DNA from: an uncultured bacterium
GTDB lineage: Bacteria; Planctomycetota; Phycisphaerae; Phycisphaerales; SM1A02
Direction of reading: 5' to 3'
Assembly (NCBI GenBank): GCA_903831295.1
Contig: CAIKXA010000031.1
Span: forward strand, 1 to 64,000
DNA length: 64,000 nucleotides
The notes beneath the pieces are model-generated. The model saw only the letters and a list, made by a program, of their open reading frames with translations. It searched no databases and was not told the origin of the DNA. The position numbers and the translations under genes are program-made. Positions 35,496 to 41,770 of the stretch are shown here, piece after piece; the stretch's first letter is position 1; the number at the start of each line of letters is the position of its first letter.

Positions 35496-36671
35496 GTGAT
35501 CTATCTGGACAACAACGCCACCACCAAGCCACTTGCGGAAGTTGTGGAATCCGTGCGCGAATCACTCGAGAACAATTGGGGTAATCCCAGCAGTATTCAC
35601 CGGCTTGGCCAAGCGGCGCGCGCTCAAGTGGAAAGCGCGAGAGAGAGCGTGGCGCGTCTTGCGGGTTGTTCCCCGCGTGAAATTATTTTTTGCTCCAGCG
35701 GAACGGAGTCGGCGTCGCTGGCATTGCGCGGCGTTTTGGATGCGTATCCCAAACGGAGAGTGATTGTCACCAGCAAATTGGAACACGCGGCCGTACGCAC
35801 CTTGGCGCAACACCTTGAAGCCGCGGGCCGATGCGAAGTGGTTTGGGCTGAGCATGCGCCGAGCGGAGAAATACATCTTGATCACTTGCGAACGGCGTTA
35901 AAAAAACGCGCCGATGAAATTGCGTTGGTGTCGCTGATGTCGGTGAACAATGAGACCGGCGTGATGCTTCCCACGAAAGTCGTTGGTGAATTATGCAAGG
36001 AGAATGACGTTCTATTTCACACCGACGCCACGCAGTCCATGGGTCGCCACCCCTTTGATGTGGCGAATACCCCAATTGATTTTGCTACCTTCTCCGCGCA
36101 TAAATTGCATGGCCCCAAAGGTGTAGCGGCATTATTCGCGCGCCGAGGCGTTGGCATTTCAGCGCAACTTGTGGGCGGACCTCAAGAGCGTGACCGCCGT
36201 GCTGGAACGGAAAACGTCCCCGGGATTGTTGGCTTTGGCGTGGCTGCCCAAGCAGCGCGCACATGGTTGGACACTGCCGATATGAAGCACGTCGCGGAAC
36301 TCAGGAATCAATTGGAAACTCGGATTCAATCCGAAATTCCAGACGTGGTGATGAATGGATTTGCCACAACAAGAATATGGAACACAACCAATATCGCCTT
36401 TGCGCATTTGGAGGCGGAAGCCATTTTGCTTGCGCTTTCCAATGAAGGTCTTTGCGTCAGCGCGGGTGCGGCATGCAGTTCCGGCTCGCTTGATCCGACG
36501 CCAGTGCTTTTAGCCATGGGGGTTCCACCTATTCTGGCACACGGAAGCGTGCGCTTTAGCTTGTCTCGCTTCACAACGCTTGAAGAAATTGCGCAAGCCG
36601 CCACAATTGTGTGCGATTGCGTGCGCAAACTTCGCGCGCGCACGTGTGCGGCGATTACAAGTGTGAAGTAA
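35496..36671 (+). CDS. Cysteine desulfurase (NifS/IscS type)
   Basis: A 391-residue PLP enzyme releasing sulfur from cysteine for Fe-S clusters or tRNA thiolation. It opens IYLDNNATTKP, has the Schiff-base Lys in FSAHKLHGPKG, and the persulfide-bearing Cys in AGAACSSGSLDPTP, the longer loop of group I enzymes. I start at GTG 35496 immediately before IYLDNNAT; upstream frame is filler past the tRNA. No iscU or suf genes adjoin. The 3' end overlaps the convergent FtsK-like gene by 17 bp. Confidence 0.92.
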   Translation: MIYLDNNATTKPLAEVVESVRESLENNWGNPSSIHRLGQAARAQVESARESVARLAGCSPREIIFCSSGTESASLALRGVLDAYPKRRVIVTSKLEHAAVRTLAQHLEAAGRCEVVWAEHAPSGEIHLDHLRTALKKRADEIALVSLMSVNNETGVMLPTKVVGELCKENDVLFHTDATQSMGRHPFDVANTPIDFATFSAHKLHGPKGVAALFARRGVGISAQLVGGPQERDRRAGTENVPGIVGFGVAAQAARTWLDTADMKHVAELRNQLETRIQSEIPDVVMNGFATTRIWNTTNIAFAHLEAEAILLALSNEGLCVSAGAACSSGSLDPTPVLLAMGVPPILAHGSVRFSLSRFTTLEEIAQAATIVCDCVRKLRARTCAAITSVK

Positions 36672-39600
36672 ACAACTTTCCAAGCACTTGCGCCGATGCG
36701 ATTTCAAAAGGACGAAAGCGTTCGGTCGCGCCTTTTTCCTCGCTGAAGATCAACGCGCGGTCCGCTCCCAAGCGCGAGGCTGTTGGCGTGTCCATTAAAT
36801 AACTGGAATCATTGGCGCTCATCTGCATAAGCACGCGGAAGTCAAATTCACGCAGCGCGTTGCGATCAATGCAACGCTGCAAACTTGGAGCCGTGTCAGC
36901 CCATGCGAATACATGCACACCGACGCCAGGACCGTCGCGAAGAATGGCGCCCAGCACCTTGTCAGGTTTCGGTGGGCCGTCGCTGGACATGGAGAAATCG
37001 TCCTCGTCTTTGCGCAACGTGCGGAAGCGTTGCAGGCCATGGATCATGAGCAATATTGGTGGTTGATCTTGCCGGCCTTCGGCGATGCGCCGCGCCACTT
37101 CCTCGCCCAACTGCAGAACCGCCGCGTCACTGTCGCGATAATTTGGAACATCGGCGTTGAGTTTGAGATTTTCAATAGTGGTCTGCAACACTCCAGCCGT
37201 GAGCGAATCCGGCGTGGTGCCGTCCAGTAAAACCACGCGGCCAGAAATCTTGCGCGTGACAGCGGCGAAACTCACAAGAGCCGCCACGCTTAGACCCGCG
37301 GCAACCTCCTCGCGCTGGCCAATCACAATGATGTTCGCGCCCGACTGACGACGCAGCGTGATCACGCTGGCGTTGCGGATGGCGACTGGATCCCCGACAA
37401 ATATTTGCAGGGCGGGAACGCCAGACGCGGGCGGATTGGCAATCAACTCTTGCAGAGGCTCGCAACGCTCAATGCGAGCGGCCGCGGTTCCGTCAAAGAC
37501 AATCATCTTGCGATCGGCAACGCCCTTGGCGCGCGCGGACTCAGCGAGCGATCGAACACGTTCGTCACGCTGCGCGTCCGTGAGCCAGACAACTTGAAAT
37601 GGACTGTTGCCCTCGATCAAACCGCCGGCGTCGTTGTAGATCGCCTCGCCCGGACGCGACAGCAACCGCGCCGCGGTGTTGTCGTCGGACAAGATCATGG
37701 CGGCGTCGGCCTCGTTGCATTGCAGCGCGATGCGAATTCCCATTTGTCCCATGGTGGTGCGCGGAAGCGCATACGTTCCACCCAAAGTTTGCGAACCCAG
37801 AATTACATGCATGCCGAATGCGCGGCCTTGGCGCACCAATCGATCAAGCAACAGCGATGAATCCTGCGCGACCTTGTCCTCTTCCACGAACAATTCTTGA
37901 AACTCGTCCACGATCAAGAGCGTGCGCGGCATGGATTCTTTCTTGCCCAGCAATCGCCACGCGGCCAAATCTTGCACGCCGGCCAAGCGAAACAAATCGC
38001 CGCGACGCTTCAACTCCGCGTCGAGTCCCTGCAACACGCTCAGACCAAATTCGCGGTCGCTCTCCACCGCAACCGCGCGAGCATGGGGAAGTCCGTGGGT
38101 CGCGTACGCCTTAAACTCAACGCCCTTCTTGAAATCGATCAGCCACAACTCAACTTCATTGGGCGAATACCAAAGCGAAACATTGGTGATCAACGCGTGC
38201 AGCAAAGTGCTTTTACCCGAGCCGGTTTTGCCGGCAAGCAACACGTGCTGGCGGGTTCCCTCGCCAATTTCAATGGATTGCAATTTGTTGGCGCCGCTGC
38301 GTCCAACAGGCACGCGCAAAATCTTGGCGCTTGAACTGGTCCAGCGTTGCTCAGGCTTGGGCTCGATGGCTTGGAATGGCACCTCCACTTTGGAGCCAGC
38401 CTTGGCCTCGCGTCCAATTTTTTTCAACATGGTTTGCAACATCGTCGCCGTTGGCATCTGCACGGGCGTGAATGGAACATCGTCTAGACCGAGGGCGTCG
38501 ACGACAAATCGATCTTCCCGCCAACGCACTCGCGCGCATCGCTGGAGCAATTCTTCTTCCTTGATTAATCCAGGAAGCGGCTGCGATGGATCGCGTAACA
38601 ACAAAAAGTGAACTCCACATCGGGCGCCTGATTGAAGCAAACTCGCGAAACGTTTGCTGCCCGCCTCCGTGAGTCCCGCTGGAAAATCGGCGAACACGAT
38701 CACACGCAGTGGCTCCGCCAACTCGCCCGCTTGCTGATTAAATTGCGCGATCGTGGCGAATTCATCGCGCAGAAATTTCTGAATGACCGTCTCGACATAT
38801 TCCGTGAGATCCGTCAACTTTTGCTCAATGTGGCGCGGCTCGCTCCAGATGCGCTCACTGACAAGCGACTCCATTTCATCGGCGAGATGCATGAAGCCCG
38901 CGAAACTTTGACCAAGGCCAACAGGATCAAAGAAATAGAAACGTACCTTGCCTGGCGGAATCTGCGTGAGCAATCGAAGCGTGGCGCTTTGAAGAAGTTC
39001 GATGGCTTTTTCGCGGCCTTGCAATGGCGCTTCCACCAACAGCGATGGAAGATTTGGTAATGGACGCAACGCGGGAATATTCCACGCAGGCGCAGTCTTG
39101 CTGGAATCCGCCCATTGGCATTGCGGCTCGGTTGGCATTCCATTGGCGATGGTGGACACATCAAGTTTGAACCAGCCAAACGCCATGGCTTGCGACATGA
39201 TTTGCAGAGACGGCGCATCCATGGCCGCTTGCCACTCGGGCATCAACACATTCGCGCTTTGCTGCATGGCATTAGCCCATGTGGAAAATTCATCGCGCGC
39301 ACTCAGCCATGCATTGCACCGAGTAACGGCGCGCGACTTCTCCATTGCGTCGCACTTTGAGCGATTTTCATTGGACTGTTTTTTTTCCTGATCGAGCTGA
39401 GTTTCCATTTCCAGGAGCAACTTCTTACGGGTTGCTTTCGCGGACTTGGTTGCTTGCTCAAGTATTTTATTTTTACTTTCCTCTACCGCGGCGAGTTTTT
39501 TCTTGCGCTCCTGCTTGATCTCCTCTATCAGCGCGCGACTTGTCCCCTGCATATTTTCAATGATGGGAGTCCATTTTTCCTTGGCGGATTTCACTTCGCG

Positions 39601-40536
39601 GTCACGGGTGTTCACCGCTGAGGCTGCGGCCGCAATTCGATGCTCATGCGCCAACTTCATAGCCATTTCAAAAGCGGCCGCCCCCACTTGCCGCGCATTG
39701 GCAATAGAAATCCATGCGTGGTGAACTTGCTTACGCGCCATAAACCACAGCACGCATATTCCAACTGCGCTCACAAATACTCCAACGGCGGCGGATACGG
39801 CCAATACCATTCCGCGCCCGCCCGCAAGCGCGGTGGCGAGAGCGAATGTGCCCGTGATTAAAATTGATGGCACCAACAGAATTGGACCGCGAAACAAACC
39901 AGGCAGTTTCAACTTGCGAAATCGCTCTAGTGCGTCCATCGCTATGGCGGCTTGTGTCGCCAATATTCCCTCGCAGGATTTGGGAACAAGATTGGCATTC
40001 ATGGGTGGAGCGGGCGGTTCCGACTGGCGATAGCGCTTGAGTTGAAACACCGCCGCGGCGATAGACTGGTTCAGCGTGGCTTGAAAGTGAACGAGCCGGC
40101 TGTGGGTTTCCTCAAATTCCAATTTGGGCGCGGCCTCGCCTGTCTCCAAAACACTTTCCGCAAGCCAAATGGCCTCCTCCAAGTGCTGCTTGTTGGCGTG
40201 CAGATCGTCCTTGAATTTATTTTGAATCTCCTCGGCTTCCACACGCGCGTGATCTTTGATGTTCTTCAGATCAAGCGCCGCCGCGCTTTCGGTGGCGTTG
40301 GATTGCTGTTGATAAGCGTGATCGCATTGACTTAAACTTTTTTGGTATTGCTCGTCAATCTGATTCACCCGAAGTTGATGGCGAGACATTTCCGCCTGCC
40401 GCAACGCTAAGATTTCTTTTACAGCGGCGTCAAGCTCCTCCTCATGCGCTTGACACGCCTGGCTGAACGCTTTCCAACGCTGCGCGCACTGCGCAAGTGG
40501 ATCAAGATTTTCAAAGTCCGTGGGCAAGTTGGTCAC
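36655..40536 (-). CDS. FtsK/SpoIIIE-type ATPase of a WXG (Esx-like) locus
   Basis: A 1,293-residue protein with a GTG start. Residues 1-170 are charged coiled coil; two membrane helices lie at about 217-239 and 242-267; 275-400 is again coiled coil. Three ATPase-like modules follow: about 500-690 lacks Walker A but keeps RVIVFADFP; about 735-1000 is intact, with GKTGSGKST (769-777) and TLLIVDEFQ (872-880); about 1040-1290 has GQREEVAAG in the P-loop position and ILLMIHGLQRF as Walker B. Multiple FtsK modules plus two N-terminal helices recall EccC/EssC, which drive type VII secretion. The upstream WXG-like genes support that role. DNA translocation cannot be excluded, but there is no gamma domain. 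Confidence 0.85.
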   Translation of the reverse strand: MTNLPTDFENLDPLAQCAQRWKAFSQACQAHEEELDAAVKEILALRQAEMSRHQLRVNQIDEQYQKSLSQCDHAYQQQSNATESAAALDLKNIKDHARVEAEEIQNKFKDDLHANKQHLEEAIWLAESVLETGEAAPKLEFEETHSRLVHFQATLNQSIAAAVFQLKRYRQSEPPAPPMNANLVPKSCEGILATQAAIAMDALERFRKLKLPGLFRGPILLVPSILITGTFALATALAGGRGMVLAVSAAVGVFVSAVGICVLWFMARKQVHHAWISIANARQVGAAAFEMAMKLAHEHRIAAAASAVNTRDREVKSAKEKWTPIIENMQGTSRALIEEIKQERKKKLAAVEESKNKILEQATKSAKATRKKLLLEMETQLDQEKKQSNENRSKCDAMEKSRAVTRCNAWLSARDEFSTWANAMQQSANVLMPEWQAAMDAPSLQIMSQAMAFGWFKLDVSTIANGMPTEPQCQWADSSKTAPAWNIPALRPLPNLPSLLVEAPLQGREKAIELLQSATLRLLTQIPPGKVRFYFFDPVGLGQSFAGFMHLADEMESLVSERIWSEPRHIEQKLTDLTEYVETVIQKFLRDEFATIAQFNQQAGELAEPLRVIVFADFPAGLTEAGSKRFASLLQSGARCGVHFLLLRDPSQPLPGLIKEEELLQRCARVRWREDRFVVDALGLDDVPFTPVQMPTATMLQTMLKKIGREAKAGSKVEVPFQAIEPKPEQRWTSSSAKILRVPVGRSGANKLQSIEIGEGTRQHVLLAGKTGSGKSTLLHALITNVSLWYSPNEVELWLIDFKKGVEFKAYATHGLPHARAVAVESDREFGLSVLQGLDAELKRRGDLFRLAGVQDLAAWRLLGKKESMPRTLLIVDEFQELFVEEDKVAQDSSLLLDRLVRQGRAFGMHVILGSQTLGGTYALPRTTMGQMGIRIALQCNEADAAMILSDDNTAARLLSRPGEAIYNDAGGLIEGNSPFQVVWLTDAQRDERVRSLAESARAKGVADRKMIVFDGTAAARIERCEPLQELIANPPASGVPALQIFVGDPVAIRNASVITLRRQSGANIIVIGQREEVAAGLSVAALVSFAAVTRKISGRVVLLDGTTPDSLTAGVLQTTIENLKLNADVPNYRDSDAAVLQLGEEVARRIAEGRQDQPPILLMIHGLQRFRTLRKDEDDFSMSSDGPPKPDKVLGAILRDGPGVGVHVFAWADTAPSLQRCIDRNALREFDFRVLMQMSANDSSYLMDTPTASRLGADRALIFSEEKGATERFRPFEIASAQVLGKLFTSHL

Positions 40537-40581
40537 TGCGATCTATCGTACAAGTGGAATGGTTTGAGTTTGCGAATGTGG

Positions 40582-40812
40582 TCACTGAATGGAATTTGGA
40601 TCATTGCACTCGCTACGAATTCGAGCGATCAAATCGCGCATGGCTTCCATGGCTTGAATCGCGGCCTTGCCACCATCTTCAAGTGGCTGAACATACTTTT
40701 TGGCCAGCATTTGGGAAGCGGGATCTTTCCATTGGCTCTCGGATTCAGCCCATTTCATGCGGAATTCCTTCAGCGCTCCGTACAGTCGTTGACGACCACC
40801 TTCAACACTCAT
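40582..40812 (-). CDS. Small WXG-like helical protein
   Basis: A 76-residue, wholly helical protein whose ATG overlaps the preceding stop (ATGA). It has QWKD at 27-30, with the turn followed by L-x3-Y-x3-L spacing, resembling the centre and second helix of the WXG100-like protein encoded two genes upstream (TWRDQ then F-x3-F-x3-M). No signal peptide, in keeping with Esx-type substrates. I read it as a short second Esx-like partner; this rests on by-eye comparison. It is 45 bp before the ATPase gene. Confidence 0.65.
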   Translation of the reverse strand: MSVEGGRQRLYGALKEFRMKWAESESQWKDPASQMLAKKYVQPLEDGGKAAIQAMEAMRDLIARIRSECNDPNSIQ

Positions 40813-41438
40813 GGCAGCGGCTCCTGCTTGCTTTGAGCGGACAAATCTTGACTGGAATCATCCGAAGGCGCGCTGTCAACGGCGCGCTTCATGTTTGCGC
40901 CTTGCGTGGCCGCGGCAAGTTCCACTTCAAACATCTTGGAGACATCCACGGGCTCGTCGCGGACATACCGCTCTATGGCCACAACCATTCTTCCAAGCGC
41001 CACGATTGCCGCGGGAAGTTCACGCTCATGCATGGATGCGATCATTGCGGTGGCGCCCTTGAACAACGCCTGCTCGCGCGGAAAATGTTGCGCCCATGAT
41101 TTTGTACGCGCGGCCCGTCGCTCCGCGTCCTCCAGCATTGCCTTCACCCGCGCCAATGTCTTGCGCTCATCAACAGTGCTGGGCTTTGAATCCTTGCTGC
41201 TGGTCACCGTCTCTTTGCGAAACAGCGCGCTGCGGGCGTTGTTCAAGTCTTCGCGAAGACGGTTGATGCGCCCGCGCCAATACATCACTCGATCGTTTTG
41301 CAGCCACATCACAAGTCGGTCAACTTCGCTATCGGCTTCGGCCACGGCAAGACCCAACTCCTCGCGACAGCGAATAAATGCGGCGCGCGTTCGCTCCAGT
41401 ACCTCGACTGATTGAATATTGACTTGCTGCGGATCCAT
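40809..41438 (-). CDS. Helical protein of the FtsK/WXG operon
   Basis: A 209-residue, almost entirely helical protein with no signal peptide. An N-terminal helical hairpin has Trp-rich centre VMWLQNDRVMYWRGRINR, a Ser/Lys linker follows (TVTSSKDSKPSTVDE), then further helices and a Ser/Asp/Gln-rich tail. I do not recognise a family. I chose ATG 41438 (MDPQQVN); an ATG at 41462, coupled by TGATG to the previous stop, would add eight residues. It overlaps the next gene by 4 bp. Position between two WXG-like genes suggests a chaperone or third substrate of the system. Confidence 0.68.
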   Translation of the reverse strand: MDPQQVNIQSVEVLERTRAAFIRCREELGLAVAEADSEVDRLVMWLQNDRVMYWRGRINRLREDLNNARSALFRKETVTSSKDSKPSTVDERKTLARVKAMLEDAERRAARTKSWAQHFPREQALFKGATAMIASMHERELPAAIVALGRMVVAIERYVRDEPVDVSKMFEVELAAATQGANMKRAVDSAPSDDSSQDLSAQSKQEPLP

Positions 41439-41461
41439 AATGTGGTTGCACCAGCAACGCA

Positions 41462-41734
41462 TCAACGCTGGTTGAGATATTCCTCGATGCGCTCGGCCTT
41501 GCGGACAAGAAATGGAATGTGCGTGTCACAGGCTTTGACAAATTTCTGCAACGCACGCATGGTTTGCTCAAACTCCTCCGAGAATTTCACCTGCTCTTGG
41601 TCGCGCCAAGTTTGCTGCAAGCCTCCAAGAGATGCGCCAACGCGCGTCATTTGGGTTTGCACGTCATTGTTAAATTTCTTCAAGTCAGCGGCGAATCGGC
41701 GGAGTTCATTGGGATCAACAATTGCTTTGGCCAT
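41462..41734 (-). CDS. WXG100/ESAT-6-like protein
   Basis: A 90-residue helix-turn-helix protein. Residues 8-38 form helix 1, the turn carries Trp43-Arg-Asp (the W-x-G position, with Asp for Gly), and helix 2 runs FSEEFEQTMRALQKFVKACDTHIPFLVRKAERIEEYL. Length, helical hairpin and central Trp match WXG100 proteins, which are secreted as dimers by FtsK-type ATPases. It has no signal peptide. AGAGG six bases before ATG 41734 marks the first gene of the operon, divergent from an aldehyde dehydrogenase. Confidence 0.78.
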   Translation of the reverse strand: MAKAIVDPNELRRFAADLKKFNNDVQTQMTRVGASLGGLQQTWRDQEQVKFSEEFEQTMRALQKFVKACDTHIPFLVRKAERIEEYLNQR

Positions 41735-41770
41735 GGTGTACCTCTTTCATAAGTGTACGCTTTGGGGACA

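What the first reader, a model, noticed from the sequence alone, without database searches (positions are those of the whole stretch)
36655..41734. Compact Esx-like secretion operon: WXG100-like, helical protein, second WXG-like and a three-module FtsK ATPase
Seen: four tightly packed minus-strand genes, two overlapping by 4 bp. The first and third encode small helical proteins without signal peptides, each with a central W-(R/K)-D. The last encodes a membrane FtsK/SpoIIIE protein with two helices, coiled coils and three ATPase-like modules. Known: Esx/type VII systems pair WXG100 dimers with EccC/EssC ATPases. No EccB/D/E, EssA/B or YukD-like gene is adjacent, so this may be a minimal or different system.
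Basis: partly seen in the sequence, partly recalled or inferred. Interest (0 to 1): 0.85.

Follow-up and report, generated by a model that had tools for sequence, protein, structure and literature searches.

The report
Minimal type VII-like secretion operon, planctomycetes
Four genes in a planctomycete encode a stripped-down relative of the type VII protein exporters of tuberculosis and staphylococcus bacteria (one membrane motor protein, two small WXG100-type helical proteins and a helical-hairpin protein); close relatives of this set have been noted before in Helicobacter and in phage-defence loci, but here it is a stable chromosomal gene set with a membrane-anchored motor, and nobody has tested what it exports.

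Summary
The operon (A 41462-41734, B 40809-41438, C 40582-40812, D 36655-40536, minus strand) is real: all four genes are under purifying selection, and order A-B-C-D holds in 81 of 99 long relative loci. A is a WXG100 protein (best solved match H. pylori HP0062, also 'WRD'). C is a second, diverged WXG100-like protein. B is predicted as a long helical hairpin with a disordered tail carrying a conserved S-M-R-R-type motif. D is a two-TM ATPase whose three modules match EccC/EssC end to end; only the middle keeps a Walker A. A and D co-occur across the phylum (57 genomes both, 7 one only, 328 neither), even megabases apart. Hence a one-membrane-protein, type VII-like translocase; export is untested. 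Relatives are in print: a 2012 planctomycete note, the H. pylori 'minimal T7SS' HP0062/HP0066, and a TM-less version in CoCoNuT defence loci. Added here: TM-anchored motor, vertical inheritance beside dnaG-rpoD and an aldehyde dehydrogenase (not mobile here), and a middle gene position that elsewhere carries a nuclease beside an immunity gene, or an Imm33-like domain. New variant of a known kind.

The parts
41462..41734 (-). Gene A: WXG100 protein (90 aa), W-R-D at the hairpin bend
   Evidence: PF06013 45.7 bits, cut-off 27.3; PDB profile best match HP0062 E 1.1e-10, then EsxB; dN/dS 0.01 or less
40809..41438 (-). Gene B: helical-hairpin protein (209 aa; start ATG 41438) with disordered C-terminal tail; tail motif NMKR, a form of the conserved [ST][MT]RR motif
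   Evidence: AlphaFold mean pLDDT 88, helices 10-76 and 88-159; no database family; tail motif in 56 of 105 homologues, 0.33 expected
40582..40812 (-). Gene C: second, diverged WXG100-like protein (76 aa), W-K-D bend; overlaps B by 4 nt
   Evidence: profile-profile match to A, 91% probability; best PDB profile match T. curvata Esx E 0.005
36655..40536 (-). Gene D: EccC/EssC-like three-module ATPase (1293 aa), GTG start
   Evidence: PF01580 107 bits; EccCa 111 bits, below the equivalog cut-off; EccC best in PDB by sequence and Foldseek
39751..39882 (-). D: transmembrane hairpin (aa 219-262), between two coiled-coil-rich stretches
   Evidence: hydropathy scan; two hydrophobic segments in the N-terminal 520 aa in 80 of 95 homologues, at least one in 91
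38209..38232 (-). D: Walker A GKTGSGKS (aa 769-776), the only one in the protein, middle module
37888..37920 (-). D: Walker B region LLIVDEFQELF (aa 873-883)
   Evidence: invariant D877, E878 in alignment A1

Best explanation
The operon encodes a minimal type VII-like translocase. D would form an ATP-driven ring (hexamer, by analogy with EccC/FtsK) held in the cytoplasmic membrane by its TM hairpin, with coiled-coil arms on either side and one active plus two degenerate ATPase modules in the cytoplasm. A and C, both WXG100-like hairpins, would dimerise (A with itself like HP0062, or A with C like EsxA-EsxB) and, with the long hairpin B, form the complex that D recognises and moves out of the cytoplasm. 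B is the most likely carried protein or cargo adaptor, because its position is where relatives bear C-terminal payload domains. Shown here: family membership of A, D and (at profile level) C; B's predicted fold; operon conservation; co-occurrence of A with D; absence of YukD/EssB homologues. Inferred: hexamerisation, interactions, direction and fact of transport, B's role. Not explained: how anything would cross the outer membrane.
For: A is WXG100; C is a second WXG100-like protein. D is EccC/EssC-like over three modules by sequence profile and fold, distinct from the genome's own FtsK. A-B-C-D order in 81 of 99 loci of 13 kb or more. A and D co-occur in 57 planctomycete genomes, one without the other in 7, neither in 328, also where unlinked (G124: 3.4 Mb apart; G045; G405). 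Purifying selection on all four. B-position payloads in relatives: WHH/colicin-type nuclease next to a SUKH immunity gene on a Helicobacter plasmid; Imm33-like domain on B in planctomycete loci L034/L171, L041, L043, L088 (weak in L161).
Against: No secretion evidence of any kind. EccB/D/E or EssA/B partners, needed in characterised systems, are not seen beside the operon (genome draft, 84% complete; EccB test inconclusive). Host is a diderm and no outer-membrane component is apparent. The window's B has no payload. A lacks the YxxxD/E C-terminal signal of mycobacterial substrates. D's middle module alone matches the FtsK motor slightly better than EccC by Z (31.6 vs 28). The Helicobacter and Caballeronia B-position proteins are equivalent by position, not by a strong sequence match.
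Confidence: 0.6

Rival explanations
1. A conflict or stress-response module rather than an export machine: D remodels or translocates nucleic acid or protein complexes inside the cell, and A, B and C are adaptors, as in the CoCoNuT/TerY-P operons that contain TM-less relatives.
For: Caballeronia plasmid relative lies with VWA, CARF, PP2C and kinase genes; Rhodococcus plasmid relatives with TerD, or Hsp70/GrpE genes; D hits SspH, mad8 and HerA models of defence systems; CoCoNuT paper PMC11090510 describes the cassette.
Against: In the window's family it is single-copy, chromosomal, syntenic with dnaG-rpoD and aldH, without defence neighbours, and D has a TM hairpin that the plasmid relatives lack. 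The PADLOC hits probably reflect the shared FtsK/HerA fold.
Confidence: 0.22
2. A housekeeping envelope or chromosome function peculiar to these bacteria, with D as a second FtsK-like DNA pump and A-C as accessory structural proteins.
For: Core in the window's family (65 of 72 good genomes have a WXG100 match); flanked by dnaG-rpoD; A at least as constrained as recA.
Against: Only 38 of 216 good genomes of the phylum have D; an ordinary FtsK is present; multi-module match is to EccC/EssC, not FtsK.
Confidence: 0.12
3. A mobile or decaying remnant of a type VII system ('mobile versions of T7SS').
For: PMC3482391 note 6 uses that phrase for this class; plasmid relatives exist.
Against: Conserved synteny across genera, no mobile genes adjacent in the window, strong purifying selection.
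Confidence: 0.03

Closest known systems
HP0062-HP0066 'WXG100 secretion system' of Helicobacter pylori (PMC4978471; HP0062 structure 3FX7, PMC3397514)
   Same: WXG100 protein with WRD bend (best PDB match of A) and an FtsK/SpoIIIE gene, HNH-type nuclease nearby; stable chromosomal locus; called a minimal T7SS
   Different: Reported with nuclease and DnaK-like genes; the Helicobacter plasmid relative examined here (L085) has an 823-aa ATPase without the TM hairpin; window locus has no nuclease
Type III-A CoCoNuT-associated EssC/WXG100 cassette (PMC11090510)
   Same: EssC-like ATPase with three modules, only the central one active, N-terminal coiled coil; two WXG100-like proteins, one without the motif; a coiled-coil protein among them
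   Different: CoCoNuT version lacks TM helices, has a nuclease on the coiled-coil protein, and is embedded in VWA/CARF/TerY-P defence operons
'Solo WXG' with distinct YueA-like 3-module ATPase in planctomycetes and others (PMC3482391, Table 1 note 6)
   Same: Same phylum, same ATPase architecture (only middle module active), WXG protein
   Different: One-line note; calls them mobile; B, C, TM hairpin and synteny not described there
Type VII secretion systems T7SSa (ESX) and T7SSb (Ess), and T7SSc-j (PMC11217815)
   Same: WXG100 protein plus EccC/EssC ATPase
   Different: No EssB or YukD in the draft genome, no other T7SS membrane gene adjacent, no FHA domains; only the central module active; diderm host

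Membership tests
WXG100 (PF06013) | A scores above Pfam gathering threshold | tested here: met
   45.7 vs 27.3 bits
WXG100 (PF06013) | Literal W-x-G motif | tested here: not met
   W-x-D in A and C; 140 of 141 A homologues W-x-D; HP0062 likewise (PMC3397514). Pfam does not require the G
WXG100 (PF06013) | C belongs to the superfamily | tested here: inconclusive
   No Pfam hit; profile-profile 91% to A; PDB Esx E 0.005
EccC/EssC ATPase | Three cytoplasmic FtsK-type modules plus N-terminal two-TM anchor | tested here: met
   model aligns to 4nh0 over 741 residues; TM pair
EccC/EssC ATPase | NCBIfam equivalog cut-offs for EccCa, EccCb, EssC | tested here: not met
   111 vs 509, 77 vs 347, 95 vs 778 bits
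EccC/EssC ATPase | Clades with EccC/EssC rather than FtsK in a tree of the active module | tested here: inconclusive
   D plus plasmid cassettes form their own clade (98/98), FtsK/SspH separate (99/99); unrooted, three groups
T7SSa / T7SSb | EssB/YukC and YukD components | tested here: not met
   absent from draft genome, B. subtilis control rings
T7SSa / T7SSb | EccB component | tested here: inconclusive
   no hit, but no control genome rang
T7SSa / T7SSb | EccD, EccE, EssA, EsaA components in the genome | not tested
   only the adjacent genes were inspected
T7SSa / T7SSb | Secretion of WXG100 protein | not testable with these tools
   needs experiment
CoCoNuT-associated EssC/WXG100 cassette | Three modules, only central Walker A/B intact; N-terminal coiled coil | tested here: met
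CoCoNuT-associated EssC/WXG100 cassette | No TM helices; nuclease on coiled-coil protein; TerY-P/CARF neighbours | tested here: not met

The most novel reading that the evidence does not exclude
A self-sufficient, vertically inherited type VII-like translocase of diderm bacteria with a single membrane protein, in which the long-hairpin gene B is the modular cargo carrier: naked with an [ST]-M-R-R tail motif in most planctomycetes, fused to an Imm33-like domain in some, and at the same position a nuclease with immunity gene in plasmid and Helicobacter relatives. This would be an ancestral or domesticated form of toxin-exporting systems.
Probability: 0.3. Interest if true: 0.78.

Novelty: new variant of a known kind. 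Interest (0 to 1): 0.55.

Why it matters
Type VII secretion is usually described as Gram-positive and as needing several membrane partners. A conserved, chromosomal, one-membrane-protein version in diderm planctomycetes would show the smallest working core (motor plus WXG100 hairpins), make the question 'can an EccC/EssC-type motor translocate without its partners?' directly testable, and link a stable core system to the toxin and phage-defence cassettes built from the same parts.

Tried and rejected
Foldseek and VIA-align of the B hairpin against PDB gave only generic coiled coils (Smc arms, VIPP1, PI3K regulatory subunit; Z about 10-12, below the level trusted for long helices), so no fold relative is claimed. 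A tree of the active ATPase module could not say whether D is sister to EccC or to FtsK; some long plasmid branches were left out in the second build. 'D is a defence ATPase' from PADLOC SspH/mad8/HerA hits: not followed, as the shared fold explains them and EccC scores higher. Other substrates in the genome: no second WXG100, B or C homologue found. 'Mobile element': rejected for this family by synteny. In my early scripts the B start was placed one codon too low and its first residue written as M; the searches and the structure job are not affected. The single scan of genome contigs returned only close relatives, so the distribution outside Planctomycetota was not measured.

Full report
What is there. 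On the minus strand, 41734 to 36655, four genes follow each other: A (90 aa), B (209 aa from the conserved ATG at 41438), C (76 aa, overlapping B by 4 nt) and D (1293 aa). Flanks are ordinary: dnaG, rpoD and a NifS-type cysteine desulfurase on one side, an aldehyde dehydrogenase and recA on the other (my naming from the translations). The host is a planctomycete; relatives in public collections are deposited mostly as Phycisphaerales, Phycisphaerae or Planctomycetia MAGs.

The genes are real and constrained. Against close relatives (L126-L130) dN/dS is about 0.01 or less for A, 0.06-0.11 for B, 0.03-0.25 for C (few sites) and 0.11-0.16 for D; A is at least as constrained as recA (0.03-0.04). 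In the window's family 83 of 101 genomes, 65 of 72 good ones, have a WXG100 match, nearly always one. In 99 relative loci of 13 kb or more, 81 have A-B-C-D together in that order; ten have A, B and C without D nearby. dnaG/rpoD and the aldehyde dehydrogenase recur beside the operon (53/62 and 64 loci), so it is inherited vertically here.

A and C. A is a WXG100 protein by Pfam. Its profile's best solved structures are H. pylori HP0062 and EsxB/EsxA. Its motif is W-R-D, as in HP0062 (PMC3397514). C has no family hit, but its profile aligns to A's over the W-x-D bend (hhalign 91%), hits the WXG100 proteins of plasmid relatives (E 1.5e-7 for Caballeronia) and best matches an Esx protein of T. curvata in PDB (4lws, E 0.005; the organism of that entry is from my own knowledge). 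I count C as a probable, not proven, member.

B. AlphaFold predicts two helices of about 70 residues folded as a hairpin (10-76, 88-159, block pLDDT up to 98), a short third helix and a disordered tail. No fold relative could be named. The tail, otherwise very variable, holds [ST][MT]RR or NMKR in 56 of 105 homologues (0.33 expected from shuffled tails; 73 with a looser pattern); shared ancestry contributes, but conservation amid variable sequence suggests a docking signal. Some B proteins add an Imm33-like domain (L034/L171, L041, L043, L088 above the Pfam cut-off; L161 weak; L090 looks alike but was not scanned).

D. Two hydrophobic segments at 219-262 sit between coiled-coil-rich stretches. 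Three modules follow; only the middle has a Walker A and B. The closest NCBIfam models are EccCa (111 bits) and EssC (95), far below their equivalog cut-offs. The profile scores EccC 132 bits against FtsK 39. The model of aa 430-1293 has EccC as best Foldseek match (4e-32; FtsK 2.5e-16), and VIA-align shows long multi-module alignments with EccC/EssC (741, 501, 490, 464 residues), although the single middle module matches FtsK motors at slightly higher Z (31.6 vs 28). The structural alignment places the active middle module on EccC/EssC ATPase 2, while sequence puts it nearer ATPase 1 (67 vs 49 bits); I leave this open. In a tree, D and the plasmid cassettes form a clade (98/98) apart from FtsK/SspH and from EccC; without a root, the sister group is undecided.

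Functional link. Among 392 genomes drawn from the phylum, A and D are both found in 57, A alone in 4 (three incomplete assemblies and one weak hit), D alone in 3, neither in 328 (Fisher p about 1e-59; related genomes are not independent). The link holds where the genes are far apart (G124, G405, G045). This indicates that A and D work together.

Relatives. On plasmids: Caballeronia has VWA-WXG100-436 aa-113 aa-76 aa-ATPase-CARF-VWA-PP2C-kinase, the CoCoNuT/TerY-P setting (PMC11090510). Helicobacter NHP19-012 has WXG100-[helical + WHH nuclease]-SUKH-77 aa-ATPase: a toxin with its immunity gene at B's position. Rhodococcus AH-ZY2 has a B homologue (E 3e-13) with an extra C-terminal region that looks ParB-like to me (no Pfam hit). 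These ATPases lack the TM pair. N-terminal homology to B is significant only for Rhodococcus, marginal for Caballeronia (0.003), and not found for Helicobacter, so the cargo-carrier idea rests partly on position.

Mechanism. Most likely an inner-membrane, ATP-driven translocase for helical-hairpin proteins, with B as carrier or substrate. Shown: parts, conservation, co-occurrence. Inferred: ring, docking, transport. A conflict-system or housekeeping role cannot be excluded.

Novelty. Already in print: the planctomycete note (PMC3482391), the H. pylori minimal T7SS (PMC4978471) and the CoCoNuT cassette (PMC11090510). Not found in the papers I could search: the four-gene set, the TM-anchored variant, its stability in this family, B's hairpin and tail motif, the Imm33-like fusions, and the equivalence of B's position with toxin genes. 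T7SSc-j (PMC11217815) cover Gram-positives only. A subscription review or the 2012 TerY-P paper, which I could not read, may hold more.

Noticed in passing
41734-41753: Gene A and the aldehyde dehydrogenase gene are divergent with only about 18 bp between the listed start codons (the true aldH start may lie further in); an aldehyde dehydrogenase gene recurs in 64 relative loci.
   Followed up: partly
L085:9677-11088: Helicobacter plasmid: WHH/colicin-type nuclease gene followed by a SUKH immunity gene inside a WXG100-ATPase cassette.
   Followed up: partly
L082:10630-14979: The Rhodococcus plasmid ATPase open frame has an N-terminal stretch that looks like a TerD domain (by eye), next to separate TerD genes.
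   Followed up: no
window 40809-40900: Conserved [ST][MT]RR / NMKR motif in the disordered tail of B (56 of 105 homologues).
   Followed up: partly
L036, L166, L172-L175, L177, L178, L183, L186, L188: Sub-lineage with order B-C-A and no D nearby; in G045 D lies about 185 kb away on the same contig.
   Followed up: partly
L034 8211-9230, L041, L043, L088: B fused to an Imm33-like (PF24719) domain, normally an immunity-protein domain.
   Followed up: partly
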